Assembly (NCBI RefSeq): GCF_002896875.1
Contig: NZ_CP023278.1
Span: 744,001-808,000, forward strand
Direction of reading: 5' to 3'
Length of the DNA: 64,000 bases
DNA from: Nostoc sp. CENA543
GTDB lineage: Bacteria; Cyanobacteriota; Cyanobacteriia; Cyanobacteriales; Nostocaceae
In this document: one piece after another, positions 11,887 through 60,825 of the stretch
Numbering within the stretch: the first letter of the stretch is position 1
Layout of the letters: each line of letters begins with the position of its first letter
The notes under the pieces: generated by a model
Database searches by the model: none
What the model saw: the letters and a program-made list of their open reading frames with translations, nothing else
What the model was told of the DNA's origin: nothing
Position numbers and translations under genes: made by a program

Positions 11887-13485
11887 ATGGCGATCGCAAT
11901 CGATTTTGGTACAAGTAACACAGTCATTGCCCGTTGGAATCCCGTAACCCAACAGCCCCAAACCCTGGCCCTACCTGGCTTATCCATCCAACAAAGCCTC
12001 AACCCCCCACTAATTCCCAGCCTATTATATGTAGAAGATGCCAACCAAGGTAAAATCATAGTAGGGCAACAAGTGCGCGATCGCGGTCTTGACCTCAAAA
12101 GCGACACCAGATTTTTCCGCAGCTTCAAACGGGGAATCGGTTCAGATATCCAAGGTTTCCTCCCAGAAATCGACGGACAAACCATCACCTTTGAACAGGT
12201 AGGACAATGGTTTCTCACCCAAGTCATTGAACAACTCGCACCGCTAGAAGGCGGGTTAGATTCCCTCGTTTTAACTGTTCCCGTAGATAGCTTTGAAGCT
12301 TATCGCTATTGGCTAGGTAAAGTATGCCTTGCCTTACCCGTCGAACAGGTGCGGATGCTAGACGAACCGACAGCCGCCGCTTTAGGCTACGGTTTAGGGG
12401 AGGCAGAAAATTTGTTAGTGATTGATTTTGGCGGTGGTACTTTAGATTTATCCTTAGTGCAGTTAAATAAAAGTAGCCAAGCCAACACTAAGCCTGTGGG
12501 TTTTCTCCTCAAGTGGGGCAATAAATCCTTAGCTGAAGACTCCAAACAAAAAGTCAAAACCGCCCGTGTGTTAGCTAAAGCCGGGCAGAATTTAGGCGGT
12601 ACAGATATTGATAATTGGTTGGTAGATTACTTTGCCAAAAACCAAGGTTTAGCCGTTAGTCCCTTAACCATCAGACTAGCAGAGAAAGTCAAGATTCAAC
12701 TATCTAGCCAAAACCAAGCCAGCGAAGTTTATTTTGATGATGAAAACTTTGAAAGCTACGAACTAGAATTAAACCGCGACACCTTAGACAATATTCTCAA
12801 AGAACACGCCTTTTTTGAGCAATTAGATGAGTCAATGACGAATCTATTGCAGCAAGCGCGCCGCCAAGGCATTGAACTTGCAGATATTAACGCTGTGTTG
12901 TTAGTAGGTGGCACTGTACAACTACCAGCAGTGCAGACATGGGTAAGGCAATATTTCCCAGCCGAAAAGATTCGTTGTGAACGTCCTTTTGAAGCGATCG
13001 CCCAAGGTGCATTGCAACTATCCCAAGGCGTAGAAATCAAAGATTTTCTCTATCATAGTTATGGTGTGCGGTATTGGGATCGCCGTAACCAACGCCATAA
13101 TTGGCATCCGATTATTAAAGCCGGACAAGCTTACCCCATGACTCAGCCTGTAGAATTATACTTGGGTGCTTCTTTAGAGAATCAGCCCAGTATTGAGTTA
13201 ATTATTGGTGAACTCGGTGCAGAAACAGGCGGGACAGAAGTATATTTTGATGGCGATCGCTTAATTACCCGTCGCTTAGATAGCGGTGTCACCAGCGTTA
13301 AACCCCTAAATGATCAAGAGGGTGCCAGAACTATTGCCCAACTTACACCCCCAGGGTTTCCGGGGAGCGATCGCATTAAAATTTTATTTCAGGTTGATCA
13401 GCAAAGGTTTTTACGCATCACCGTTGAGGATTTATTAACCAGTGAAACTCTCTTAGAAAATCAACTCGTTGCCCAGTTGAGCTAA
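11887..13485 (+). CDS. Hsp70 (DnaK)-like ATPase
   Basis: The N-terminal ~380 residues form an Hsp70/actin-type ATPase. The phosphate-1 motif is AIDFGTSNTVIA, phosphate-2 is VIDFGGGTLDLSLV (near 180) and the adenosine motif is VLLVGGTVQLPAVQ (near 340). DEPTAAALGYGL is also present. The C-terminal ~150 residues are shorter and more diverged than the DnaK substrate domain, without the usual helical lid and without a DnaK-type C-terminal tail. At 532 residues it is a non-canonical Hsp70 as found in many cyanobacteria; client proteins are unknown. No dnaJ or grpE lies nearby. Confidence 0.9.
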   Translation: MAIAIDFGTSNTVIARWNPVTQQPQTLALPGLSIQQSLNPPLIPSLLYVEDANQGKIIVGQQVRDRGLDLKSDTRFFRSFKRGIGSDIQGFLPEIDGQTITFEQVGQWFLTQVIEQLAPLEGGLDSLVLTVPVDSFEAYRYWLGKVCLALPVEQVRMLDEPTAAALGYGLGEAENLLVIDFGGGTLDLSLVQLNKSSQANTKPVGFLLKWGNKSLAEDSKQKVKTARVLAKAGQNLGGTDIDNWLVDYFAKNQGLAVSPLTIRLAEKVKIQLSSQNQASEVYFDDENFESYELELNRDTLDNILKEHAFFEQLDESMTNLLQQARRQGIELADINAVLLVGGTVQLPAVQTWVRQYFPAEKIRCERPFEAIAQGALQLSQGVEIKDFLYHSYGVRYWDRRNQRHNWHPIIKAGQAYPMTQPVELYLGASLENQPSIELIIGELGAETGGTEVYFDGDRLITRRLDSGVTSVKPLNDQEGARTIAQLTPPGFPGSDRIKILFQVDQQRFLRITVEDLLTSETLLENQLVAQLS

Positions 13486-15816: not shown

Positions 15817-17157
15817 TTACGCGATAATTGTCTCTAATGTCTCTTCTATATTCGTCTCATCCCTCACTTTGAAATAATAGTAAAGATTGGCAACTGTTAG
15901 ATGAGATGCCTGTTGCAAATTCTTAGGAACTAATATTTTGTGACCCGTAATATGAGCTTGTTGGTTGATATAAACCTCATATTCCTGACGTAAAACAGGC
16001 TTGAACATAAATATCAGTTGATCCAGCAGAGAATAAAAATGAGACTTTTCAGCTAAATCTTCATAGGCTATTTGTTCGGGTGGCACTGATGTATCAGTTA
16101 CAGATTGATTACTATTCCAACACTCTGTAAACTCTGAACTGTTACTCTCGTTACTAGCTAAAAGTTCCAATTCTTTAGCTGTCAATGAACGTATCCAATC
16201 AATGCGCGCCTGCCATATTTCCAAAATAGCTAAATCGTGTTTACAAATGCGGCTAATTTCGGGAAAGAGAAAATTAAGCTCGTCGTATGATTCACAATTG
16301 CTAATTACTGTACAGGTATGTTCTTTAATTTGATCCCGTAGATAAGATAGGCGATCGCTCACAGCTACCATCTCATTTTGCAATTGATATGTGATGACAA
16401 TTGCTTGCTCAACTGCCCAAGCACATTCAAGTCTGCGGAGTTGACCTGGTGCAGAAGTTTGCTCTAATAGCTGAGGACTCATATAATAAGCTAAGGCCTC
16501 AAGCAAAATTTCCCTAGCACTATCGATTTCAGCATTTCTTTGATGACTATCTCGTAATTTTAATGCTGAGTGTAAAATATTAAGTGCCTTGAGTAATAGT
16601 TTATATGCCTTGACTAGAACTATACGATGCTTGTCAAACTCAATGTTTTCGGCTACTTCCTTGACAATTTGCCGTACTTCTATGCCTTGATATTTGAAAG
16701 CTTGTTGCAAATCGATAAAGCCGTCTTTAACTTCTAGATGTATTTGCTCAACTTCTTTTTTGAGTTTGAGTATCTGTTGCAAATTGACTGCTTCTAATGC
16801 CACATTTGATGTCTTACTCAACTCAATCATAGCTGTAGTTGTTTGCAAAACTTCTATATTTATTCGCAGTGACTGTAAGCCTGTTTGTAAACGAATATTC
16901 TGCTGATTTCTGGCGTAGAAAGCTTGATGCTTTTGTACGGTATTTTCCCCTAAAATTGCTCCTGTCATCAGGAATTGAATTGGTACAGTCAAGGGAGATA
17001 AGGGACAACTATCCACTAAAGCACCGATAGCAGGGGCAAACAAGCCTTCAGATGCGGTGTCACGTACTATGCCGATGGAGATTCCATTACTAAGTATTTC
17101 TACGTATTTACCAGCTTCCAGACTAGCTTTAATAGATGGTGTAAATTCAAACAGCAT
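15817..17157 (-). CDS. Large helical protein of unknown function, downstream of the dynamin-like gene
   Basis: The 446-residue product is mostly predicted helix. Residues ~60-200 include a long coiled-coil-like stretch (NLQQILKLKKEVEQIHLEV, DGFIDLQQAFKYQG). Residues ~25-70 (GISIGIVRDTASEGLFAPAIG, LTVPIQFLMTGAILG) are glycine-rich and mildly hydrophobic and could touch a membrane. The C-terminal half has many Leu/Glu helices and a Ser/Asn linker near 345. No catalytic motif is visible. It lies ~650 bp downstream of the TerB-dynamin gene on the same strand with a MITE between. A functional link is a guess from proximity and from the membrane-remodelling character of the neighbour. Confidence 0.65.
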   Translation of the reverse strand: MLFEFTPSIKASLEAGKYVEILSNGISIGIVRDTASEGLFAPAIGALVDSCPLSPLTVPIQFLMTGAILGENTVQKHQAFYARNQQNIRLQTGLQSLRINIEVLQTTTAMIELSKTSNVALEAVNLQQILKLKKEVEQIHLEVKDGFIDLQQAFKYQGIEVRQIVKEVAENIEFDKHRIVLVKAYKLLLKALNILHSALKLRDSHQRNAEIDSAREILLEALAYYMSPQLLEQTSAPGQLRRLECAWAVEQAIVITYQLQNEMVAVSDRLSYLRDQIKEHTCTVISNCESYDELNFLFPEISRICKHDLAILEIWQARIDWIRSLTAKELELLASNESNSSEFTECWNSNQSVTDTSVPPEQIAYEDLAEKSHFYSLLDQLIFMFKPVLRQEYEVYINQQAHITGHKILVPKNLQQASHLTVANLYYYFKVRDETNIEETLETIIA

Positions 17158-17813
17158 ACTTTACTCTGTAAAAAGGTAGATATTGCACCTAAACGGAAGA
17201 ACCCTGAAGAAGCAAGCAGTATAAAACTACGACAATAGATTCATAAAATAGTCATTCACACAAATAAATACCTCAGTATTACTACTAGATTAACCTCATT
17301 TCTACTTAATATATAGAGGCTTCTGCCAATTTAATTTGAAATTATGTTTAATCTCAATTCACAATGGAGTAACTTCAGCTACGTTAGTACAGCCTTTCAT
17401 AGAGAAGAGCGCAATTCGCAATTTTCCTGGTTAAAGTACAAATAACTATAATTAAACGTAGCTTTAGCTTGTTTGCGGTAGAATGCGCGGATAAATTTGT
17501 ACCTCAGCAGACTAGGAAAGGCTATATTTTTCAGGATTTGAATAAATTGGTCTTCAATTATATGAAATGTGTTTTAAGAAATAGCAATAAGAATACTGAT
17601 TCCTACTTAAAAATTAGCAGTTATTTTGTATTTTTGTAAAATTGTTGAAATTTACTAAAATATGTAACGATTAAGTATATAAATAGAAAATATGACAATT
17701 TTATACAGATAAAATTGCTAAACAAACAGTGCTATAATAAAGACTCAGTACACATTTTATGTTTGGTTTCTGATTCTCTGTTTCTCCGTCAACCTCCAGG
17801 GAAGCAATGCCAG
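17158..17813. other. Non-coding region with a MITE-like element
   Basis: These ~650 bases lack a gene. The palindromic element at 17388-17526 lies in the middle. The remainder is AT-rich. Confidence 0.4.
17388..17526. mobile_element. MITE-like element, copy A of the AGCCTTTC family
   Basis: Ends TACAGCCTTTCATAG and CTAGGAAAGGCTATA are imperfect inverted repeats. The interior AAAGTACAAATAACTATAAT, TTTAGCTTGTTTGCGGTAG and TTTGTACCTCAGCAGACTA match the element at 22098-22243 in the same order and orientation, so these are two copies of one mobile sequence. Confidence 0.65.
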
Positions 17814-20417
17814 TTAATCGTATTCTCTCTTAATAATTACTTTATTAATTACTTCTGAATTCCAAGTCGCAATATCTGTACTGATTTTGTTGCTGATCTC
17901 CTCAAGTTCTTGACATTTGTTCATAATCCAGGATTTAGTTGCATAATGTTGTTCTAACATTTCCTGATGCGATCGCTCTTGCTGTTCCAAGATTTTTTCA
18001 TACACAGATATAGCTCCTTCAATCACTCGACTTACTGCTTCGACTTTGGTATCAAAAAATCTTTCAATATTTTCCTGGAGTTTTTCGTATATCTTATCAA
18101 TTGATTCATCAAACTTTTGAAATCCTATTTCTAAAACAGATGTTTTAATTTGACTATGCAATCTATCGCTGTCTAACATCCTAGAGCCAAAAGAACTGGC
18201 AATTACCGAAGTGATATTAGCTAAAGCAACTGGGATAAATCCAATTCCGGTAAATACTAGTACCTCTTCTTTTAATGCAGCACTGAAATCAATACTATCT
18301 AACTCAATTAATTGATCAGTAATATCATTAATAGAAAGTTTTAATTCTTCACTGAATGTGGTGTTACTTCTAATGTCTAATAAATTAAATTCTGATTGAA
18401 TGGCTTCTAACTCATACTTAATGTTGATATTGAGGTTTTGTAAGTTCTCTTTGAGAACTAAATTTTTCAGATGAGTATTCACCCATTCATCAACTTCATT
18501 AGATAAATCTCTGACAAAATACTGAATATAGTCACGAATTAACTTATCCTGATTCCAGAGAAGTCTATGTTCAGAATGCCAATGCTCACTCCTAAATACC
18601 ATGCGTTCATCTAAACCCTCATACCACTCATTCCAAGAAACACTAGCTTTTTCCAGTGCTTGTTCTATGAGTTGAATTGTTAATAAACATATTTTGACAT
18701 CCCGTCCACTAAACTCTCCAATTCTTTCTAGGATTTTATGTTTTTCATCTTCTGCAATATTAATTTCCGACTCTAGAGCATCTTTAAAATGCAGCAGATG
18801 TTCAGTGATTTCTTGAATTATTTTATTGAGTTTATCAGACAATTGATAAAGTTTTAGTCCTCCCCTCTCCAGCATTAAGAATCTTTCAAGGGATTTAATA
18901 AAAATGTCAAAATTTTCTTGATATTCATCTTCAGTCTTATTCAAAATCGCATTGAGTGCGGTTTGAGCTGAAAGGAAGTGAACACGATTTTTTCCTGTAA
19001 TTATGGGGTTATCACCTTCAACTAAATTCAAAATTCTCTTTTGAATCTGCTCACGACCTTTTTCTGTACGCACTAAATCCATAAAATTACCTACAATGAA
19101 TAAGTTACTTGCAGGTTCTTTATCTTTACCCCCGTTGAGTTTGATTCGCAATTGATTCAACAACTCACGCTCACCTTGCGTTAGCGATCGCGAAGCATTA
19201 GTCACAAAAATAGCAGCATCAATATCGTGAAGTAACTTCTGAGTAATAGCTGTGAGTTCGGGATTTTCGTTCAAACCCGGTGAATCAATTATCTCTACAC
19301 CACTATTGCATAATGTCAAATTTGGATGTTCAACAATGATATCTTCAATAGTAGATTGTATGAATTCTTCGTTGAGTGAACCAATAGCAACCTCTTCAGA
19401 AATACTTGCTTGTTGTCTATACTCCTCAAATGGTATTTCTTCTTCTCTTCCATCTTTATAACGACAGACTACCCGTTTTCTCTCCCCGTACTTTAAGACA
19501 GCTACCGTACCACTACAAGGAATCTCTCGCATCGGTTGAATTTCTTCACCTAATAAAGCATTGAGTAAAGTAGATTTTCCTTGGCTAAATTCACCTACAA
19601 CTGCTAGCCTAAATTTGTGTGATCTGACTCTTTCTAAGACTTCCCTAGCTTTATCAACTAATTTATCTGAGTCATTAGATAAAAACCCCCGTTGATTACA
19701 AGTTTGAATTATCTGCAAAACCTGATGGCAATAATTCTCTAAATGTTTACTAAATTCTTGGAAATTCTTCAACCCTTCATAATAGACATAAACACGAGGA
19801 TTACTTTCTTGTGTGTTAGTGTTAACAGCCAAATTGATCAAATCTTCAGAGGATAACTGAAGAGATATTTTAGGATTTAATGCTTGGAAATGTGATGGAT
19901 TTAGTAAATCATCTACTTCATTTAAAACTTCTATATCAAAGTTATCTGGTGGTTTGAATGCTGATGCCAACACTGCTAAATGTTGTGGCTTAACGTCTAA
20001 ATATTGAGCTACAATTTCCAAATATCTCTGTTCACGTAAACCCATGCTGCCGTTAATTGTAGACATCTCATAGCCAAAGCCAATCAACAATAATCTTTCT
20101 GCTTGTGATAGGGGATGAGTGATAGCTAATAATTCGTTAAACTTGCGATAAAGCTGATATTTTCTAATTCCTTTAATCATCAAATGGGTTAATTTACGGA
20201 TGTCACTTTCTGGTGTGCTAAAGCGATATAATAGTTCAACTAATCTTTGTTTTTCTTTCTCGGTAACAGAACCATCAATTAGGATTACTCCTAACAAGAC
20301 AACAATCAAATTAGCTAAAAATAAAACTGGCGGAGTAACATCTTTTTGTGTCATTTTTTGTCCAGTAATATTTGACAAAAAATTAACCACCTGATTCCCA
20401 ATCAATGATGTATCCAT
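17814..20417 (-). CDS. Dynamin-like GTPase with N-terminal TerB-like domain
   Basis: The 867-residue protein has a TerB-like helical domain at about 25-165 (the acidic pair VILIDGSVTEKEKQRL and STINGSMGLREQRYL are typical). A dynamin-family GTPase follows: G1 GEFSQGKSTLLNALLG near 275-290, G2 threonine in PCSGTVAV, G3 IIDSPGLNE near 380, G4 GNFMDLV near 442. A long helical stalk follows with a hydrophobic paddle near 712-742 (VFTGIGFIPVALANITSVIA) and coiled coil to the end. Bacterial dynamin-like proteins, described from Nostoc, bind and reshape membranes on GTP hydrolysis. The TerB fusion may sense stress or metal; that is inference. GTPase assignment is secure. Confidence 0.88.
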   Translation of the reverse strand: MDTSLIGNQVVNFLSNITGQKMTQKDVTPPVLFLANLIVVLLGVILIDGSVTEKEKQRLVELLYRFSTPESDIRKLTHLMIKGIRKYQLYRKFNELLAITHPLSQAERLLLIGFGYEMSTINGSMGLREQRYLEIVAQYLDVKPQHLAVLASAFKPPDNFDIEVLNEVDDLLNPSHFQALNPKISLQLSSEDLINLAVNTNTQESNPRVYVYYEGLKNFQEFSKHLENYCHQVLQIIQTCNQRGFLSNDSDKLVDKAREVLERVRSHKFRLAVVGEFSQGKSTLLNALLGEEIQPMREIPCSGTVAVLKYGERKRVVCRYKDGREEEIPFEEYRQQASISEEVAIGSLNEEFIQSTIEDIIVEHPNLTLCNSGVEIIDSPGLNENPELTAITQKLLHDIDAAIFVTNASRSLTQGERELLNQLRIKLNGGKDKEPASNLFIVGNFMDLVRTEKGREQIQKRILNLVEGDNPIITGKNRVHFLSAQTALNAILNKTEDEYQENFDIFIKSLERFLMLERGGLKLYQLSDKLNKIIQEITEHLLHFKDALESEINIAEDEKHKILERIGEFSGRDVKICLLTIQLIEQALEKASVSWNEWYEGLDERMVFRSEHWHSEHRLLWNQDKLIRDYIQYFVRDLSNEVDEWVNTHLKNLVLKENLQNLNINIKYELEAIQSEFNLLDIRSNTTFSEELKLSINDITDQLIELDSIDFSAALKEEVLVFTGIGFIPVALANITSVIASSFGSRMLDSDRLHSQIKTSVLEIGFQKFDESIDKIYEKLQENIERFFDTKVEAVSRVIEGAISVYEKILEQQERSHQEMLEQHYATKSWIMNKCQELEEISNKISTDIATWNSEVINKVIIKREYD

Positions 20418-30517: not shown

Positions 30518-31801
30518 ATGATTGACAACAATGATGCTTTGTTGCTGAAGGCTGCTAAAAGTGGTGATTTAAAGCGGTTGGATGCGCTGTTGGCTGCGGG
30601 TGCAAATGTAGATGTGTGCGATCGCGATGGAACTACAGCCTTAATGTTTGCTGCTAATCTAGGCTATACGGAAATTGTGCGATCGCTTTTAGATGCAGGG
30701 GCAAATATTAATTTAACTAGAAAACGCTATGGTTTGACGGCGTTAATGTTGGCGGCTAGTGCTAATCAATTAGATATTGTGCAGATGTTAATCTCTAGAG
30801 GGGCTGAGATTAACGCTACTAATGAAGATGGTAGTACGGCTTTAATGGTAGCGGCACTGAAAGGCCACAGCAATGTAGTACACACTTTGCTCAAGGCTGG
30901 GGCTGATATCAATTTGTCAGATAAAGATGGTGATACGGCTTTGAAGCTAGCTGTAAAACATGGGCAAGCTGCTGTAGTGCAGTTGATTTTACAACATGGC
31001 GCGGATGCTAACAACCAAGACGAAGAAGGGGAAACCTTGCTGATGATGACAGCTGACTTGGGAAATTTGGAGGTAGCCCAAGCATTGCTAGCGGGTGGGG
31101 CTGATGTCAATTTACAAAATCAAGACGGTGGAACTGCACTCTTTGCAGCTGCGGCGGCTGGACAGGGAGCGATCGCCACTATACTACTAGATCAAGGGGC
31201 TTTAGTTAATCATCAAGATCAAGACGGTGAAACTGCTTTAAACCTTGCCGTCATAGAAGGATATCTAGATGTAGTGCAAATTCTACTCAATCGAGGTGCT
31301 AATCCTCAACTGAAAAACCATCCGGGTGATACACCTTTGATAGTAGCTGCATTACAGGGACACAGCGAGATAGTGCAAGCATTACTCAACTATGGCGCAA
31401 ATGTACATGGGGATAATCTGGGTGAAACTCCTTTAATCTTAGCTGTCTCCCAAGGACATACACAGACAGTCAAGGTATTGTTAGATTATGGCGCGAATCC
31501 TAACGCCACAGCTAACGATGGCAAAACTGCGCTAATTAAGGCAGCAGAACGCAACTATCACCAGATAATTCAGTTATTGTTAGGCAATGGTGCAAACATT
31601 AATGCTCAAGATGCAGCTGGGGCTACAGCTTTGATGTGGGCAGCATCGGGAGGTTATGGTACAGCAGTCCAGACATTAATAGCATCTGGGGCTGATATGA
31701 ATTTAAAAAACCGTGGTGGTTATACTGCTTTGATGCTGGCGGAATTTAATGGCTATAGAAGCATTGTGCAGATTTTGAAGCAAGCAGGAGCGCAAAATTA
31801 G
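30518..31801 (+). CDS. Ankyrin-repeat protein
   Basis: The 427 residues consist of about twelve ankyrin repeats of 33 residues (for example DGTTALMFAANLGYTEIVRS, DGSTALMVAALKGHSNVVHT and GGYTALMLAEFNGYRSIVQI). There is no signal peptide, membrane segment or other domain, so this is a soluble binding scaffold. Partners are unknown. Neighbours give no hint. The repeats are diverged in DNA, unlike the near-identical repeats of the big kinase at 54181-60825. Confidence 0.93.
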   Translation: MIDNNDALLLKAAKSGDLKRLDALLAAGANVDVCDRDGTTALMFAANLGYTEIVRSLLDAGANINLTRKRYGLTALMLAASANQLDIVQMLISRGAEINATNEDGSTALMVAALKGHSNVVHTLLKAGADINLSDKDGDTALKLAVKHGQAAVVQLILQHGADANNQDEEGETLLMMTADLGNLEVAQALLAGGADVNLQNQDGGTALFAAAAAGQGAIATILLDQGALVNHQDQDGETALNLAVIEGYLDVVQILLNRGANPQLKNHPGDTPLIVAALQGHSEIVQALLNYGANVHGDNLGETPLILAVSQGHTQTVKVLLDYGANPNATANDGKTALIKAAERNYHQIIQLLLGNGANINAQDAAGATALMWAASGGYGTAVQTLIASGADMNLKNRGGYTALMLAEFNGYRSIVQILKQAGAQN

Positions 31802-54180: not shown

Positions 54181-57100
54181 CTACGACGCATAAAGCCAAA
54201 CTCGTAATAAAGATAGTAGTTGTTCTGTATCTACTGGTTTCGCAATGTAGTCTGAGGCACCGGCGGCGATGCAGTGATCGCGATCGCCTTGCATGGCTTT
54301 GGCAGTGAGAGCGATAATTGGTAAGTTCTGAAATTGCTGATTCTGGCGAATTAGCCGCATGGTTTCGTAACCATCCATTTCTGGCATCATCACATCCATC
54401 AAGACCACATCAATATCAGGTGTTACTTCTAACAAGCTAATCCCTTCTCTACCGTTTTCTGCATATATGACCTGCATTTGGTAGCGTTCTAGCATACTAG
54501 TGAGGGCGAAGATGTTACGCACATCATCGTCAACGATTAGCACTTTTTTGCCCACTAAAGAATTGTCTTGAGAATATAGTTGTTCTAAGATTTCCCGCTT
54601 GGGTGTGGGTAAATTTGCCTGGACGCGGTGAAGGAATAATGCGGTTTCATCAAAGAGACGTTCGGGCGATCGCACATCTTTAATGATAATGGTTTCGGCT
54701 ATCCGTCTGAGTTCTGTTTCTTGAGTGGGAGTGATTTCTCTACCTGTGTAGACAACTATGGGCAAAGTTGTACTGTTGGGTTCTCGCTTGATTTGTTCTA
54801 TGAGTTCAAAACCTGTCATATCAGGTAAACCTAAATCTAGAACTAAGCAATCAAATTCCTGAGTGCGAATGGCTTCTAGGGCGGCGGCACCCGTACCAAC
54901 AGCCACAGTTACTACATCGTTATTGCCAATGAGTTCAACAATGCTTTGACGTTGCAAATCATCATCTTCCACCACCAGTAAATTCTTCACTCGCCGTTCT
55001 ACAAAACCTCTAATTTTATACAGGGCTTCGGACATCGCTTCACTAGTTACTGGTTTTTGTAAATAAGCGATCGCACCTAGTAGTAAACCCCGTTGCCGTC
55101 CTTCTTCGACGGTCATAATGTGTACAGGAATATGACGGGTAGTCGGGTCACGTTTGAGGCGACTCAGCACTGTCCATCCATCCATTTCGGGTAAGCGAAT
55201 ATCCAGTAAAATCGCCATTGGTAAAAATTCTTTGGCTAGTTTCAGCCCATCTGTACCAGTTTGGGCGGTAATTACCTGGAATCCGTGCTGTCGTGCCATA
55301 TCTACTAAAATCCGGGCAAAATTAACGTCATCTTCAATAATGAGTAATACTTTATTCTCTGATGCTGTTTTGCTAATGCTGTCGCGGTCGTCTTGGACAA
55401 TAGGGTTTTGGTAAACGACATTTGCTGGGCGTAGCTGTTCATCCTTGGTGTTCCCGTTTGTGTAGCGTACTTTAGAGAAGGGCGTACTCTGCGGAGTTGA
55501 GGATACAGATTCTGCACTGAACTGGGGTAAATAGAAGGTAAATGTACTTCCTTGACCAAGATAGCTGACAAGTTTAATTTCTCCACCTAACAGATGAGCA
55601 ATTTCTCGGCTAATAGATAAGCCTAATCCAGTACCGCCGTATTTGCGGCTGGTTGTGCCATCAGCTTGCTGAAAGGCTTCAAAGATAATTTTCTGTTTAT
55701 CAGGTGCAATGCCAATACCTGTATCACTGACAACGAAAGCTAACACTGTCTGGGCATGGCTTAAAGTCGGTTGATGATCACTCCATCCTTGTTTGGCTAC
55801 CTCAATCCTCAGCCGGACTTCACCCCGTTCCGTAAATTTAAAGGCATTCGAGAGGAGATTTTTTAAGACTTGCTGCAAGCGTTTGATATCTGTACTCACG
55901 TTGCTAGGCAAATCAGGCGCAAATTCAATGGCAAAAGCCAGACCTTTATTTTGAGCCATTTGCCCAAAACTCCGTTCAATCTGTTCAGCCAACTCAGATA
56001 AAGGTATCGAAGTCACATGAATTGACATTGTACCCGATTCAATTTTGGCTAAATCTAAAATGTCATTGATTAATGCCAACAGTTCATTACCGGCTGAGTA
56101 GATGGTTTGGCTGTACTCCACTTGTTTAGCGGTGAGATTACCATCAACGTTATCTGTTAACAATTTGGCCAAAATCAACAAGCTGTTTAGGGGTGTCCGC
56201 AATTCATGGGACATATTCGCTAAAAATTCCGACTTATATCGAGATGAGAGGGCTAGTTGTTCGGCTTTCTCTTCTAATGACCGTCTAGCTTGTTCAATTT
56301 CTTGATTTTTTCGCTCTACTTCTTTTTTCTGGAGGGCTAACAGTTCGGCCTTTTCTTCTAGTTCGGCATTGGTTTGCTGTAATTCTTCCTGTTGTCCCCG
56401 TAATAAGTCTTCCGAGGTTTTGAGTGATTGGGCTTGTTGTTCCAGCCGCTTGTTAGTTTCGCGGAGTTCATTTTGTTGAGTTTGTAGTTCTTGTGCCAGA
56501 GACTGGGATTGTTTGAGTAATTCTTCGGTACGCATCGAGGCGGCAATGGTGTTGAGAACGATCGCAATACTTTCGGTGAGTTGGTCGAAGAACGTTAAAT
56601 GAATTTCACTAAAGCGGCGGAAAGCAGCTAATTCAATTACCGCCGTGACTTGTCCCTCAAATAGCACAGGTAATACTACTGCATTCAGGGGATTGGCTTC
56701 TCCTAAACCGGAGCTAATTTTGATATAGTCACTGGGGACTTCTGTTAACAAAATGCGTTCTTTTTCTAAAGCACATTGCCCCACTAAACCTTCTCCTAAA
56801 TGGAAGCGGTTAGCTAGATGTTTACGTTCGCGGTAGGCGTAGGTACTGAGTAGTTTCAAGTATGATGCTGGTGGATTTTCGCCATTTTCCATTAGGTAGA
56901 AAACGCCGTGTTGCGCGCTGACAAGGGGTGCAAGTTCTGAGAGGATGAGTTTAGATACGGTTTCTAAGTCACGCTGACCTTGCAACATCCGAGTGAATTT
57001 AGCGAGGTTAGTTTTTAACCAGTCTTGCTCAGTATTTTTCTGGGTGGTCTCCCTGAGATTGGCAATCATCTGGTTGATGTTGTCTTTGAGGATTGCCACT

Positions 57101-60100
57101 TCCCCTTGGGCTTCCACAGCAATAGAACGGGTTAAATCGCCTTTAGTTACGGCTGTAGCTACTTCCGCGATCGCCCGTAACTGGGTAGTCAATGTTGCCG
57201 CTAATTCGTTGACGTTGTCCGTGAGGTCTTTCCACGTCCCAGCCGCCCCCGGAACTTTAGCTTGACCGCCTAACTTCCCTTCAATCCCCACTTCCCGCGC
57301 CACTGTCGTCACCTGATTAGCAAAGGTAGCTAGGGTATCAATCATTTCGTTGATGGTTTCCGCCAAGGTTTCAATTTCCCCTTTGGCATCTAACATCAGT
57401 TTGCGTTTTAAGTCACCATTCGCCACCGCCGTCACAACTCTGGCGATACCCCGCACTTGGGCTGTCAAGTTCCCCGCCATCGAGTTAACGTTATCTGTTA
57501 AGTCTTTCCAGGTTCCCGCTACACCTTGGACTAAGGCTTGACCACCTAATTTCCCTTCTGTTCCTACCTCCCGCGCTACCCTTGTTACTTCCGAGGCAAA
57601 GGAACTGAGTTGATCCACCATTGTATTAATCGTGTTTTTCAACTCCAAAATTTCACCTTTGACATCCACGGTGATTTTCTTCGACAGGTCGCCATTGGCT
57701 ACCGCCTTCGTCACTTCTGCAATGTTCCGCACTTGGGCTGTGAGATTTCCCGCCATCAAGTTGACGTTATCTGTCAAGTCTTTCCAAGTCCCACCCACAC
57801 CCCGGACGTAGGCTTGTACACCCAGTTTTCCTTCTGTTCCCACTTCTCTGGCGACCCTTGTCACCTCAGAAGCAAAGGAGTTGAGCTGATCCACCATTGT
57901 ATTAATCGTGTTTTTCAACTCCAAAATTTCACCCTTCACATCCACGGTGATTTTCTTCGACAGGTCGCCATTGGCTACCGCCGTTGTCACCTCGGCAATA
58001 TTTCTTACCTGTGCCGTCAAACTCCCCGCCATAAAGTTCACGCTGTCGGTCAAGTCCTTCCACGTACCCGCCACACCTTTGACTTCGGCTTGTACGCCCA
58101 GCTTTCCTTCTGTTCCCACCTCCCGCGCTACCCTTGTCACCTCTGAGGCAAAAGAGTTGAGCTGATCCACCATTGTATTGACGGTGTTTTTCAACTCCAG
58201 AATTTCGCCTTTGACATCCACGGAAATTTTCTTCGACAGGTCGCCGTTAGCTACAGCCGTTGTCACCGCCGCAATGTTTCTTACCTGTGCCGTCAAACTC
58301 CCCGCCATGAAGTTCACACTGTCGGTCAAGTCTTTCCATGTACCGGCGACACCCTTGACATCGGCTTGTACACCCAGTTTCCCTTCACTACCTACTTCTC
58401 GCGCTACCCTTGTCACCTCAGAAGCAAAGGAGTTGAGCTGATCCACCATGATATTGATTGTGTTTTTCAACTCCAGAATTTCGCCTTTGACTTGTACCGT
58501 GATTTTCTTGGATAAGTCACCATTTGCGATCGCAGTTGCTACTTCGGCAATGTTCCTGACTTGGTCGGTGAGGTTGCCTGCCATCATATTCACCGCGCCG
58601 GTTAAGTCCTTCCATGTACCCGCCACACCGCGCACTTCGGCTTGTACACCCAACTTTCCTTCTGTTCCCACCTCCCGCGCTACCCTGGTCACTTCTGATG
58701 CAAAGGAACTGAGTTGATCCACCATTGTGTTAATCGTGTTTTTCAACTCCAAAATTTCGCCCTTCACATCCACGGTGATTTTTTTGGATAGGTCGCCGTT
58801 CGCTACCGCCGTCGTTACTTCGGCAATATTTCTTACCTGCGCCGTCAAACTCCCCGCCATGAAGTTCACACTATCGGTCAAGTCTTTCCACGTACCCGCC
58901 ACGCCTCGCACTTCGGCTTGTACTCCCAGTTTCCCTTCACTACCTACCTCTCGCGCCACCCTAGTAACTTCTGATGCAAAGGAGTTGAGCTGATCCACCA
59001 TTGTATTAATCGTGTTCTTCAACTCCAGAATTTCACCCTTCACATCCACGGTGATTTTTTTGGACAAGTCGCCAGTCGCTACCGCCGTTGTCACCTCGGC
59101 AATATTTCTTACCTGTGCCGTCAAACTCCCTGCCATGAAGTTCACGCTGTCAGTCAAGTCTTTCCACGTACCGGCAACACCTCTGACATCAGCTTGTACA
59201 CCCAGTTTCCCTTCACTACCTACTTCTCGTGCCACCCTGGTAACTTCTGATGCAAAGGAACTGAGTTGATCCACCATGATATTAATCGTGTTTTTCAACT
59301 CAAAAATTTCACCCCTGACATCAACAGTAATTTTCTTCGATAAATCTCCGTTAGCGATCGCGGTTGCTACCTCAGCAATATTCCGCACCTGTCCTGTGAG
59401 GTTTCCTGCCATCAAGTTGACATTATCGGTTAAGTCTTTCCAAGTCCCGGCAACGCCTCGTACTTCTGCTTGTACACCCAGTTTGCCTTCTGTTCCCACT
59501 TCCCGCGCCACCCTTGTTACCTCAGAAGCAAAGGAGTTGAGCTGATCCACCATTGTATTAATCGTGTTTTTCAGCTCCAAAATTTCACCCTTCACATCCA
59601 CGGTGATTTTCTTGGATAGGTCGCCATTCGCTACCGCCGTCGTCACCTCGGCAATATTTCTTACCTGCGCCGTCAAACTCCCCGCCATGAAGTTTACACT
59701 GTCGGTCAAGTCTTTCCACGTCCCCGCCACGCCTTTAACTTCTGCTTGACCACCTAATTTTCCTTCTGCGCCTACCTCCCGCGCCACCCTGGTAACTTCT
59801 GATGCAAAGGAGTTCAGTTGATCCACCATGATGTTGACGGTGTTTTTCAACTCTAGAATCTCTCCCTTGACATCCACGGTGATTTTCTTCGACAAGTCAC
59901 CATTCGCTACAGCTGTCGTCACTTCCGCAATATTCCGTACCTGTGCTGTCAGATTCCCTGCCATCAGGTTGACGTTATCAGTTAAGTCTTTCCAAGTCCC
60001 AGCAACGCCTCTAACTTCTGCTTGTACACCCAGTTTGCCTTCCGTTCCTACTTCCCGCGCTACCCTAGTAACTTCCGATGCAAAAGAATTAAGTTGATCC

Positions 60101-60825
60101 ACCATTGTATTGACGGTGTTTTTCAACTCTAAAATTTCGCCTTTGACATCAACTGTAATTTTCTTCGATAAATCACCATTGGCGATCGCGGTTGCGACTT
60201 CTGCAATGTTCCGCACCTGTCCGGTGAGGTTTCCTGCCATCAAGTTGACGTTATCGGTTAAGTCTTTCCAAGTCCCGGCAACACCTCGTACTTCTGCTTG
60301 TACACCCAGTTTGCCTTCGGTTCCCACTTCCCGCGCTACCCGCGTCACTTCACCAGCAAAGGAACTCAGCCTTGTCACCATCGTATTGACAATGTTGGCA
60401 GTTTGCAGAAACTCTCCCTTCAGGGGTCTAGCGTCAATTTCTGTGGCGATGGTTTGGGATAAGTCACCGTTAGCTACAGCCCGAATCACCCGTGTAGTTT
60501 CTGCCGTAGGCTGAACTAAATCTGTAATTAGAGTATTGACAGAATTGACACAATCTGACCACGAACCACGGACATTTCCTAATGAGGCACGTTCACTAAT
60601 TTTGCCCTCTTTGCCAACAACATTGCTAATGCGCTTTAGCTCTGCTGCCATGCGCTCATTTTGGTCAATGATATCGTTGAGCGTATCAGCTATTTTCCCA
60701 GCTATACCAGTTTGGTCAATTGGCATCCGAGCAGAAAAATCACCTTTTTTTACAGATGTCAGGGTTTTGAGTAGCTCTTTTAAATCCAGGTGGTCAGATT
60801 CTTTAGTTAACTGTTCGGTTGCCAT
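54181..60825 (-). CDS. Giant soluble hybrid histidine kinase with poly-HAMP array and three receiver domains
   Basis: The 2214-residue protein has no membrane helix. Residues ~20-1255 form a chain of HAMP-like units; about twelve copies of a 92-residue module ([49 protein letters not shown]) are nearly identical. A GAF domain follows (~1275-1420), then coiled coil, HisKA with phospho-His in [12 protein letters not shown] (near 1538), and HATPase (LLSNAFKF near 1660, GTGLGLSIS near 1732). Three receivers follow with phospho-Asp in [11 protein letters not shown] (~1875), LVLDLGLPD (~1997) and [11 protein letters not shown] (~2143). The layout recalls fungal group III (Nik1/Os-1) kinases, where poly-HAMP senses osmotic or chemical stress. 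Signal and output are unknown here. Confidence 0.95.
57540..60370 (-). repeat. Tandem 276-bp repeats inside the kinase gene
   Basis: The string TTGATCCACCAT or GCTGATCCACCAT recurs at about 57610, 57886, 58162, 58438, 58712, 58988, 59264, 59540, 59816 and 60092, a strict 276-bp period (92 codons). Units are very similar in DNA, so recent duplication or gene conversion is likely. Confidence 0.9.

What the first reader, a model, noticed from the sequence alone, without database searches (positions are those of the whole stretch)
15817..20417. Dynamin-like GTPase fused to a TerB-like domain, with a helical partner downstream
Bacterial dynamin-like proteins reshape membranes. Here the GTPase carries an N-terminal TerB-like acidic helical domain, and the next gene on the same strand is a large coiled-coil protein with a glycine-rich hydrophobic segment. 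TerB domains are tied to stress, metal and phage-defence clusters. The pair may be a membrane-stress or defence module.
Basis: partly seen in the sequence, partly recalled or inferred. Interest (0 to 1): 0.5.

Follow-up and report, generated by a model that had tools for sequence, protein, structure and literature searches.

The report
Cyanobacterial TerB-dynamin and its partner
A membrane-shaping enzyme of the dynamin kind is inherited together with an unnamed helical partner protein in many cyanobacteria, and some lineages have dropped the enzyme part but kept the rest of the pair, which suggests that the pairing itself, rather than the enzyme, is the conserved core.

Summary
Window 17814-20417(-) encodes an 867-aa bacterial dynamin-like protein with an N-terminal TerB domain (above Pfam's cut-off) and intact G1, G3 and G4 motifs. 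The next gene, 15817-17157(-), is a 446-aa helical protein of no known family. Co-occurrence is strong: of 106 near-complete partners in other cyanobacterial loci, 100 lie beside a homologue of the dynamin's C-terminal stalk (94 divergent, 6 tandem), 5 are at contig ends, 1 has none. The constant companion is the stalk, not the GTPase: neighbours are TerB-GTPase-stalk, GTPase-stalk, TerB-stalk or stalk alone. GTPase-less forms mostly lack the hydrophobic membrane segment (2 of 27 keep one; 59 of 59 with GTPase have it), yet seven pairs tested show purifying selection. The tree needs only about three GTPase changes, so these are few independent events. Twelve partners carry a fused acyl carrier protein, two a GUN4 domain. 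At one syntenic locus the dynamin gene and the ACP differ beside a 96%-identical partner. Plasmids, viruses and defence islands are not indicated. Best reading: a two-protein membrane-associated complex with exchangeable motor, sensor and lipid-linked parts; biological role unproven. New variant of a known kind.

The parts
17814..20417 (-). TerB-dynamin gene, 867 aa (P0001)
   Evidence: ORF; and 7 families and PDB relatives; dN/dS 0.07 against L064
19980..20315 (-). TerB domain, residues 35-146
   Evidence: PF05099, 26.5 bits, cut-off 24.4; family consensus shows two DG..E repeats, VDGxVAExEK and AADGxIDxREK
18858..19685 (-). GTPase domain, residues 245-520 (Dynamin_N 270-422)
   Evidence: PF00350, 96.6 bits; G1, G3, G4 conserved
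19569..19595 (-). G1 / P-loop GEFSQGKST, residues 275-283
   Evidence: conserved columns
19275..19286 (-). G3 DSPG, residues 378-381
   Evidence: invariant columns
19077..19088 (-). G4 NFMD, residues 444-447
   Evidence: N444 and D447 invariant
17880..18845 (-). helical stalk, residues 525-846: the part kept in all neighbour types
   Evidence: profile scan of 120 loci; homologous to the stalk-only proteins, hhalign probability 100, E 7.7e-40
18183..18287 (-). hydrophobic segment (paddle-like), about residues 711-745
   Evidence: read from alignment A1; the near-identical L064 protein has 19-residue hydropathy 1.79, family median 2.44
15817..17157 (-). partner gene, 446 aa (P0002), no known family
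   Evidence: ORF; no Pfam hit, nothing relevant in NCBIfam or PADLOC; AlphaFold2 model
16777..16854 (-). conserved hydrophobic helix of the partner, about residues 102-127
   Evidence: family consensus LGVLQATTALIGVGTVAGVALTAVNL; degenerate in the window's copy
17158..17813 (.). 656-bp intergenic gap; in most relatives the two genes are instead divergent, median gap 129.5 bp

Best explanation
The two genes encode a dedicated two-protein, membrane-associated complex. The constant core is the helical partner bound to the C-terminal stalk of the dynamin-like protein. On this core sit exchangeable parts: a GTPase with a hydrophobic paddle, which would give nucleotide-driven assembly and membrane bending as in BDLP; a TerB domain, which would sense or recruit; and in some lineages an acyl carrier protein or GUN4 domain at the partner's C-terminus, which would tie the complex to acyl chains or tetrapyrroles. 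Shown here: the domains, the linkage, the loss of GTPase and paddle with retention of stalk and partner, the fusions, and replacement of the dynamin gene at a syntenic locus. Inferred: physical binding of partner and stalk, membrane action, and the meaning of TerB and ACP. The most likely use is an accessory membrane-surveillance or membrane-stress device under diversifying pressure rather than an essential housekeeping machine.
For: Linkage: of 106 near-complete partners (120 loci examined), 100 have a stalk neighbour within 3 kb, 94 divergent and 6 tandem, 5 at contig edges, 1 without. In 192 genomes of the family, 54 of 56 with the dynamin also have the partner. Stalk-only proteins are true relatives of the dynamin stalk. 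GTPase-less genes are kept: dN/dS 0.18-0.52 in 5 stalk-only pairs and 0.30-0.31 in 2 TerB-stalk pairs, no internal stops. GTPase and hydrophobic segment go together: 59 of 59 against 2 of 27. The dynamin model matches BDLP, E 7e-21, then IniA, the C. jejuni DLP pair and SynDLP. ACP: Pfam 48.6-59.5 bits in the 3 intact copies scanned, 72% identical to the one ACP match of the window's genome, D-S-L kept in 10 of 12. Rapid turnover: L084 and L087 share a 96%-identical partner, but GTPase 55% and stalk 32%.
Against: No interaction, GTPase or membrane assay. The parsimony count is only 3 changes of GTPase state, one of them L192, which keeps a hydrophobic segment, so the co-loss rests on few events. 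L204 also passes the threshold at 1.65. ACP occurs in 11 of 64 GTPase-bearing and 0 of 27 GTPase-less pairs (Fisher p 0.030), but no independent pair is informative. In the family sample G038 and G190 have a dynamin match without a partner; in G190 the gene is full length and no partner was found on its 17.7-kb contig. The window's own pair is tandem with a long gap, and its hydrophobic helix is weak.
Confidence: 0.5

Rival explanations
1. Anti-phage or abortive-defence module: the dynamin-like protein detects or gathers at an infected membrane and the partner perforates it, as JukB does.
For: Patchy presence (dynamin in 5 of 13 genomes of the genus and 56 of 192 of the family); frequent remnants of the partner (32 of 85 genomes); replacement of alleles at syntenic loci. 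A second-look aligner puts the partner model nearest Cry toxin domain I (Z 11.6, 182 residues, 3.1 A) and the pore-former JukB (Z 9.5, 187 residues, 5.0 A). JukB forms pores on the phage vesicle (PMC13282480, passages). Best PADLOC hit of the dynamin is LeoA.
Against: Foldseek finds no match at E 0.001, and the aligner's note warns that Z below about 13 means little for helical bundles. The LeoA match of 48.8 bits centres on 44 residues round the P-loop. Neighbours are mostly not defence genes. No plasmid copy of the partner and none in viral contigs by the pattern scan.
Confidence: 0.25
2. Housekeeping membrane remodelling or repair, for example of thylakoids, with the ACP linking it to lipid synthesis.
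For: BDLP, SynDLP and mitofusins are the nearest structures; chromosomal location beside housekeeping genes; the ACP is of the fatty-acid type; low dN/dS in the window pair.
Against: Absent from most genomes: the partner is in 36 of 386 sampled across the phylum. Often decayed. Several lineages lack the GTPase and the hydrophobic segment altogether.
Confidence: 0.2
3. The GTPase-less and stalk-only genes are decaying remnants, and the real unit is dynamin plus partner.
For: Some loci really are decayed (for example L068, L095, L125, L175, L200).
Against: 27 clean GTPase-less genes have full-length stalks; all 14 sequences of the 7 pairs tested are open and dN/dS is 0.18-0.52; 17 stalk-only proteins of 337-364 aa align with conserved residues.
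Confidence: 0.05

Closest known systems
BDLP of Nostoc punctiforme (PDB 2j68, 2j69)
   Same: Best sequence (E 5.5e-25, residues 261-527) and fold match (E 7e-21, 706 alignment columns); GTPase plus long helical trunk with a hydrophobic tip.
   Different: No TerB domain in the matched BDLP stretch, different genetic partner, and here the GTPase is lost in some lineages.
Campylobacter jejuni DLP1/DLP2 pair (5owv, 5oxf; PMC6104087, abstract only)
   Same: A dynamin-like protein encoded with a second dedicated protein.
   Different: There both are GTPases; here the partner shows no GTPase or stalk homology.
RdcA/RdcB (YjdA/YjcZ) of E. coli (PMC6510439, passages)
   Same: A dynamin-like GTPase that binds a non-GTPase partner encoded next to it.
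   Different: It regulates a diguanylate cyclase and is described as soluble; no sequence link was found or tested beyond a 17.1-bit CrfC match confined to the P-loop.
LeoA / LeoBC (4aur)
   Same: Dynamin-like, weak matches (PADLOC 48.8 and 36.3 bits; fold E 2.5e-8).
   Different: Far below NCBIfam's cut-off for LeoA (25.9 against 325 bits); different domain composition.
SynDLP (Slr0869; 7zw6)
   Same: Cyanobacterial dynamin-like protein, fold E 2.3e-12.
   Different: No TerB or partner is reported in the abstract I saw (PMC10104851); sequence match limited to about 100 residues.
JukB and Cry toxin domain I (fold only)
   Same: Helical bundles that the structural aligner ranks first for the partner.
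   Different: 5-10% identity in those rows, no significant Foldseek or profile match; may be only a common arrangement.

Membership tests
Dynamin-like proteins (Dynamin_N, PF00350) | GTPase domain above Pfam cut-off with G1, G3, G4 | tested here: met
   96.6 bits, cut-off 27; motifs conserved
Dynamin-like proteins (Dynamin_N, PF00350) | BDLP-like helical trunk | tested here: met
   Foldseek E 7e-21 to 2j69 over 706 columns, though global TM-score is only 0.38-0.48 and model pTM 0.51
Dynamin-like proteins (Dynamin_N, PF00350) | hydrophobic membrane-binding segment | tested here: met
   59 of 59 GTPase-bearing relatives at 1.6 or more; near-identical L064 copy 1.79, among the weakest
Dynamin-like proteins (Dynamin_N, PF00350) | GTP hydrolysis and membrane remodelling | not testable with these tools
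   needs biochemistry
TerB (PF05099) | profile match above cut-off | tested here: met
   26.5 against 24.4 bits; 38.1 and 34.2 in relatives
Ter stress operons | other ter genes next door | tested here: inconclusive
   no Ter family in the first 25 of 151 Pfam families of 123 neighbours or in the 17 window ORFs scanned; not all window ORFs were scanned
LeoA/HP0731 dynamin-like GTPases (NF041922) | NCBIfam cut-off 325 bits | tested here: not met
   25.9 bits
DynA-type dynamins (NF052648) | NCBIfam cut-off 1600 bits | tested here: not met
   47.1 bits
Alpha-pore-forming proteins of the Cry domain I or JukB type (partner) | significant fold or profile match | tested here: inconclusive
   aligner Z 11.6 and 9.5 but no Foldseek E below 0.001 and no profile match
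Acyl carrier protein (fused domain in relatives, not in the window) | PF00550 with D-S-L attachment site | tested here: met
   48.6-59.5 bits in L084, L102, L119 and 24.4 in L114; D-S-L in 10 of 12, interrupted in L114 and L176

The most novel reading that the evidence does not exclude
A dynamin has been turned into a modular scaffold: stalk plus partner form the working core, which runs in some cyanobacteria without any GTPase or membrane paddle, while motor, TerB sensor and an acyl-carrier domain are swapped in and out around a conserved partner. The partner may itself be a pore-forming helical bundle whose ACP senses or carries acyl chains, so that the module couples fatty-acid status to membrane remodelling or perforation.
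Probability: 0.2. Interest if true: 0.78.

Novelty: new variant of a known kind. Interest (0 to 1): 0.58.

Why it matters
Bacterial dynamin-like proteins are widespread but few have a known role, and their usual partners are other GTPases. Here is a natural series, in related genomes, in which the GTPase, the membrane segment, TerB and an acyl carrier protein come and go while one stalk-partner pair stays. That makes two questions testable: what a dynamin stalk does without its motor, and whether acyl carrier proteins can regulate membrane remodellers directly. It also names a partner protein that gives a genetic handle on this branch of cyanobacterial dynamins.

Tried and rejected
Defence islands: rejected as a general setting after a PADLOC and Pfam scan of 123 of 187 neighbouring ORFs of 20 of 80 loci; there was no matched background set. 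Mobile carriage: viral contigs gave 31 pattern matches and no relative, plasmids no partner and only two partial GTPase matches. A third conserved gene: clustering of neighbours found only local shared synteny beyond the two genes. Homology between stalk and partner: none (hhalign probability 0.3). Known family for the partner: none convincing in Pfam over 40 members (weak Tc-R-P, bPH_10 and vinculin scores), PDB profile (one match at E 0.094), Foldseek. The window's paralogous dynamins elsewhere in the genome were not pursued.

Prior art: searches for TerB with dynamin (130 papers, 25 listed, none relevant by title), bacterial dynamin-like with cyanobacteria, TerB domain (2 papers), dynamin-like with acyl carrier protein (18 papers, 10 listed, none relevant by title), dynamin with phage defence in cyanobacteria, pseudoGTPase dynamin, TerB with dynamin family protein (none). 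Only open-licence PMC papers are held, so this is not proof of absence. The cyanobacterial dynamin review PMC5827413 has no mention of TerB, acyl carrier or operon in its main text (find). Phylum-level and family-level samples scored only a few candidates per genome, so counts are lower bounds.

A mistake mended: five contig-edge rows were counted as GTPase-bearing because the word 'edge' holds a g; one search repeats the counts correctly (64 against 27; GTPase 3 changes, TerB 8, ACP 10; Fisher p 0.030). The hydropathy counts (59 and 27) were not affected. The 16 rows left out are L068, L082, L092, L095, L098, L118, L125, L134, L135, L143, L175, L180, L194, L200, L209, L210 (contig ends, decayed or split neighbours). 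The tree is a quick one with long branches that meet, and the root is unknown; the direction GTPase loss rather than gain rests on the fold match of GTPase plus stalk to BDLP.
Full report
What is there. On the minus strand, window 17814-20417 is an 867-aa ORF and 15817-17157 a 446-aa ORF. The first has a TerB domain at residues 35-146 (26.5 bits, cut-off 24.4) and a dynamin GTPase at 270-422, with G1, G3 and G4 conserved in 20 relatives. The nearest solved relative is Nostoc punctiforme BDLP. An AlphaFold2 model (mean pLDDT 79, pTM 0.51, so trustworthy by domain rather than as a whole) matches BDLP best, followed by IniA, the C. jejuni pair and SynDLP, with mitofusins and LeoA further down. 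The second ORF has no Pfam match, only a 10.7-bit NCBIfam match, and none in PADLOC, nor any convincing one for 40 family members. It is predicted as a short beta-rich N-terminus followed by a helical body.

The pair is real. In 192 genomes of the same family the dynamin is found in 56 (E 1e-40) and the partner in 85 (E 1e-5); 54 of the 56 also have the partner. Of the 85, 53 have a near-complete partner and 32 only part of one, 28 of these being C-terminal pieces (contig ends are not separated out). In the genus 5 of 13 genomes have the dynamin. Across the phylum 36 of 386 sampled genomes have a partner match. A scan of 84,980 species' genomes with the partner alignment kept 80 loci, all with cyanobacterial titles, but this scan needs two exact peptide patterns and would miss distant relatives.

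The constant companion is the stalk. I cut the dynamin into TerB, GTPase and stalk profiles and scanned 120 loci: 80 and 40 that I chose from the tables. In 106 of them the partner covers at least 330 profile positions. Of these 106, 100 have a stalk, GTPase or TerB match within 3 kb, in 99 of them a stalk (L110, cut by its contig end, shows TerB and the start of the GTPase); 94 neighbours are divergent and 6 tandem; 5 partners lie at contig ends and 1 (L118, itself truncated) has no neighbour. The 106 neighbour states are: TerB-GTPase-stalk 55, partly cut versions of it 3, GTPase-stalk 5, TerB-stalk 5, stalk alone 20, incomplete stalk 11, a decayed TerB plus stalk 1, contig end 5, none 1. The divergent genes are a median 129.5 bp apart, 86 of 94 within 30-270 bp. 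The window's genus is unusual in having the genes in tandem or convergent. Stalk-only proteins of about 340 aa are genuine relatives of the dynamin's stalk (hhalign probability 100, E 7.7e-40) and 24 of 27 genomes that match their profile also match the partner.

GTPase and membrane segment leave together. A hydrophobic 19-residue stretch (Kyte-Doolittle 1.6 or more) is in the stalk of 59 of 59 GTPase-bearing proteins and of 2 of 27 clean GTPase-less ones, L192 at 2.40 and L204 at 1.65. On the partner tree (quick method) GTPase state needs at least 3 changes among 91 rows, TerB 8, and ACP 10 among 107, so the co-loss is a small number of events and L192 is a counter-example. GTPase-less genes are not junk: dN/dS is 0.18-0.52 in five stalk-only pairs and 0.30-0.31 in two TerB-stalk pairs, without internal stops. 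That the GTPase was lost rather than gained is inferred from the fold match of GTPase plus stalk to BDLP.

Fused parts. Twelve partners end in an acyl-carrier-like domain and two (L068, L095) in GUN4 (Pfam: PP-binding 56.0, 48.6 and 59.5 bits in L084, L102 and L119, 24.4 in L114; GUN4 96.5 and 132.5 bits). The domain is of the fatty-acid type: its best solved relatives are bacterial acyl carrier proteins (E 8e-26), and it is 72% identical to the single match in the window's genome. The D-S-L site is kept in 10 of 12 and interrupted by insertions in L114 and L176. ACP is seen in 11 of 64 GTPase-bearing and 0 of 27 GTPase-less pairs (p 0.030), but the tree gives no informative independent pair, so this may be shared ancestry. 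Both GUN4 partners stand next to decayed dynamins. Three partners have other extensions of 277-401 aa. The window's partner has none.

Fast periphery, slow core. Among 90 pairs of loci with partners at least 85% identical and all four modules present, the median identity is 0.90 for partner, 0.89 for TerB, 0.82 for GTPase and 0.70 for stalk. L084 and L087 are the same locus: stretches on one side are 91-95% identical DNA, on the other 78-84%, and the partners are 96% identical protein, but the dynamins are TerB-GTPase-stalk against GTPase-stalk with 55% (GTPase) and 32% (stalk) identity, and only L084 has the ACP. L079 and L080 share TerB at 0.90 and partner at 0.94 but GTPase at 0.63 and stalk at 0.49. 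Over all 49 complete sets the distances of the modules still correlate (0.82-0.92), so replacement is superposed on common descent. This pattern fits diversifying exchange, but I ran no formal test for recombination.

How it probably works. Inference, in steps: the partner binds the stalk (never shown); the GTPase and paddle, where present, drive assembly and membrane deformation as in BDLP; TerB gives an input; an ACP domain, where present, brings acyl chains or reads their supply. The partner's own hydrophobic glycine-rich helix reaches 1.6 in 59 of 62 GTPase-bearing and 31 of 36 GTPase-less loci, so the partner may itself touch membranes. Its model is ranked nearest Cry domain I (Z 11.6) and JukB (Z 9.5) by a second-look aligner, both pore-forming bundles (Cry from recall; JukB from passages of PMC13282480), but Foldseek gives nothing at E 0.001 and such Z values are common for helical bundles.

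Against known systems. It is a dynamin-like protein by every tested feature, but not LeoA (25.9 against 325 bits) and not DynA (47.1 against 1600). It works like, but is not shown to belong with, RdcA/RdcB, where a dynamin-like GTPase binds a non-GTPase partner (PMC6510439, passages). No paper on this pair was found in the searches or in passages of PMC5827413.

Verdict. The new points are the untouched partner family, GTPase-less members, ACP and GUN4 fusions, and exchange of the dynamin beside a conserved partner. New variant of a known kind, interest 0.58.

Noticed in passing
L099 2136-3557, L105 10001-11401: Partners beside TerB-stalk proteins carry near-perfect seven-residue repeats (VxGVSQQ) before the hydrophobic helix, as if a coiled coil were being lengthened.
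   Followed up: no
L110, L114, L115, L178: Partners with long C-terminal extensions (700-837 aa in all) that end in glycine-rich hydrophobic stretches and a coiled coil; no Pfam name for the extension in L114 and L115 apart from a degenerate ACP in L114.
   Followed up: partly
L068 10001-11779, L095 9457-11214: GUN4 (tetrapyrrole-binding) domain fused to the partner, both times beside a decayed dynamin.
   Followed up: partly
window 11887-13485: Convergent Hsp70-like protein lacking a full DnaK match, near tRNA-Gln; not conserved beside the pair.
   Followed up: no
window 54181-60825: 2214-aa histidine kinase with about eleven tandem HAMP domains, GAF and three receiver domains.
   Followed up: no
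window 30518-31801: 427-aa protein made almost wholly of ankyrin repeats.
   Followed up: no
window genome C1:1134663-1137704 and C1:4143033-4143521: Three further dynamin-like ORFs in the genome, two of them close together on one strand.
   Followed up: no
L223 (G190 contig 97): A full-length TerB-dynamin with no partner found on a 17.7-kb contig: an exception to the pairing.
   Followed up: partly
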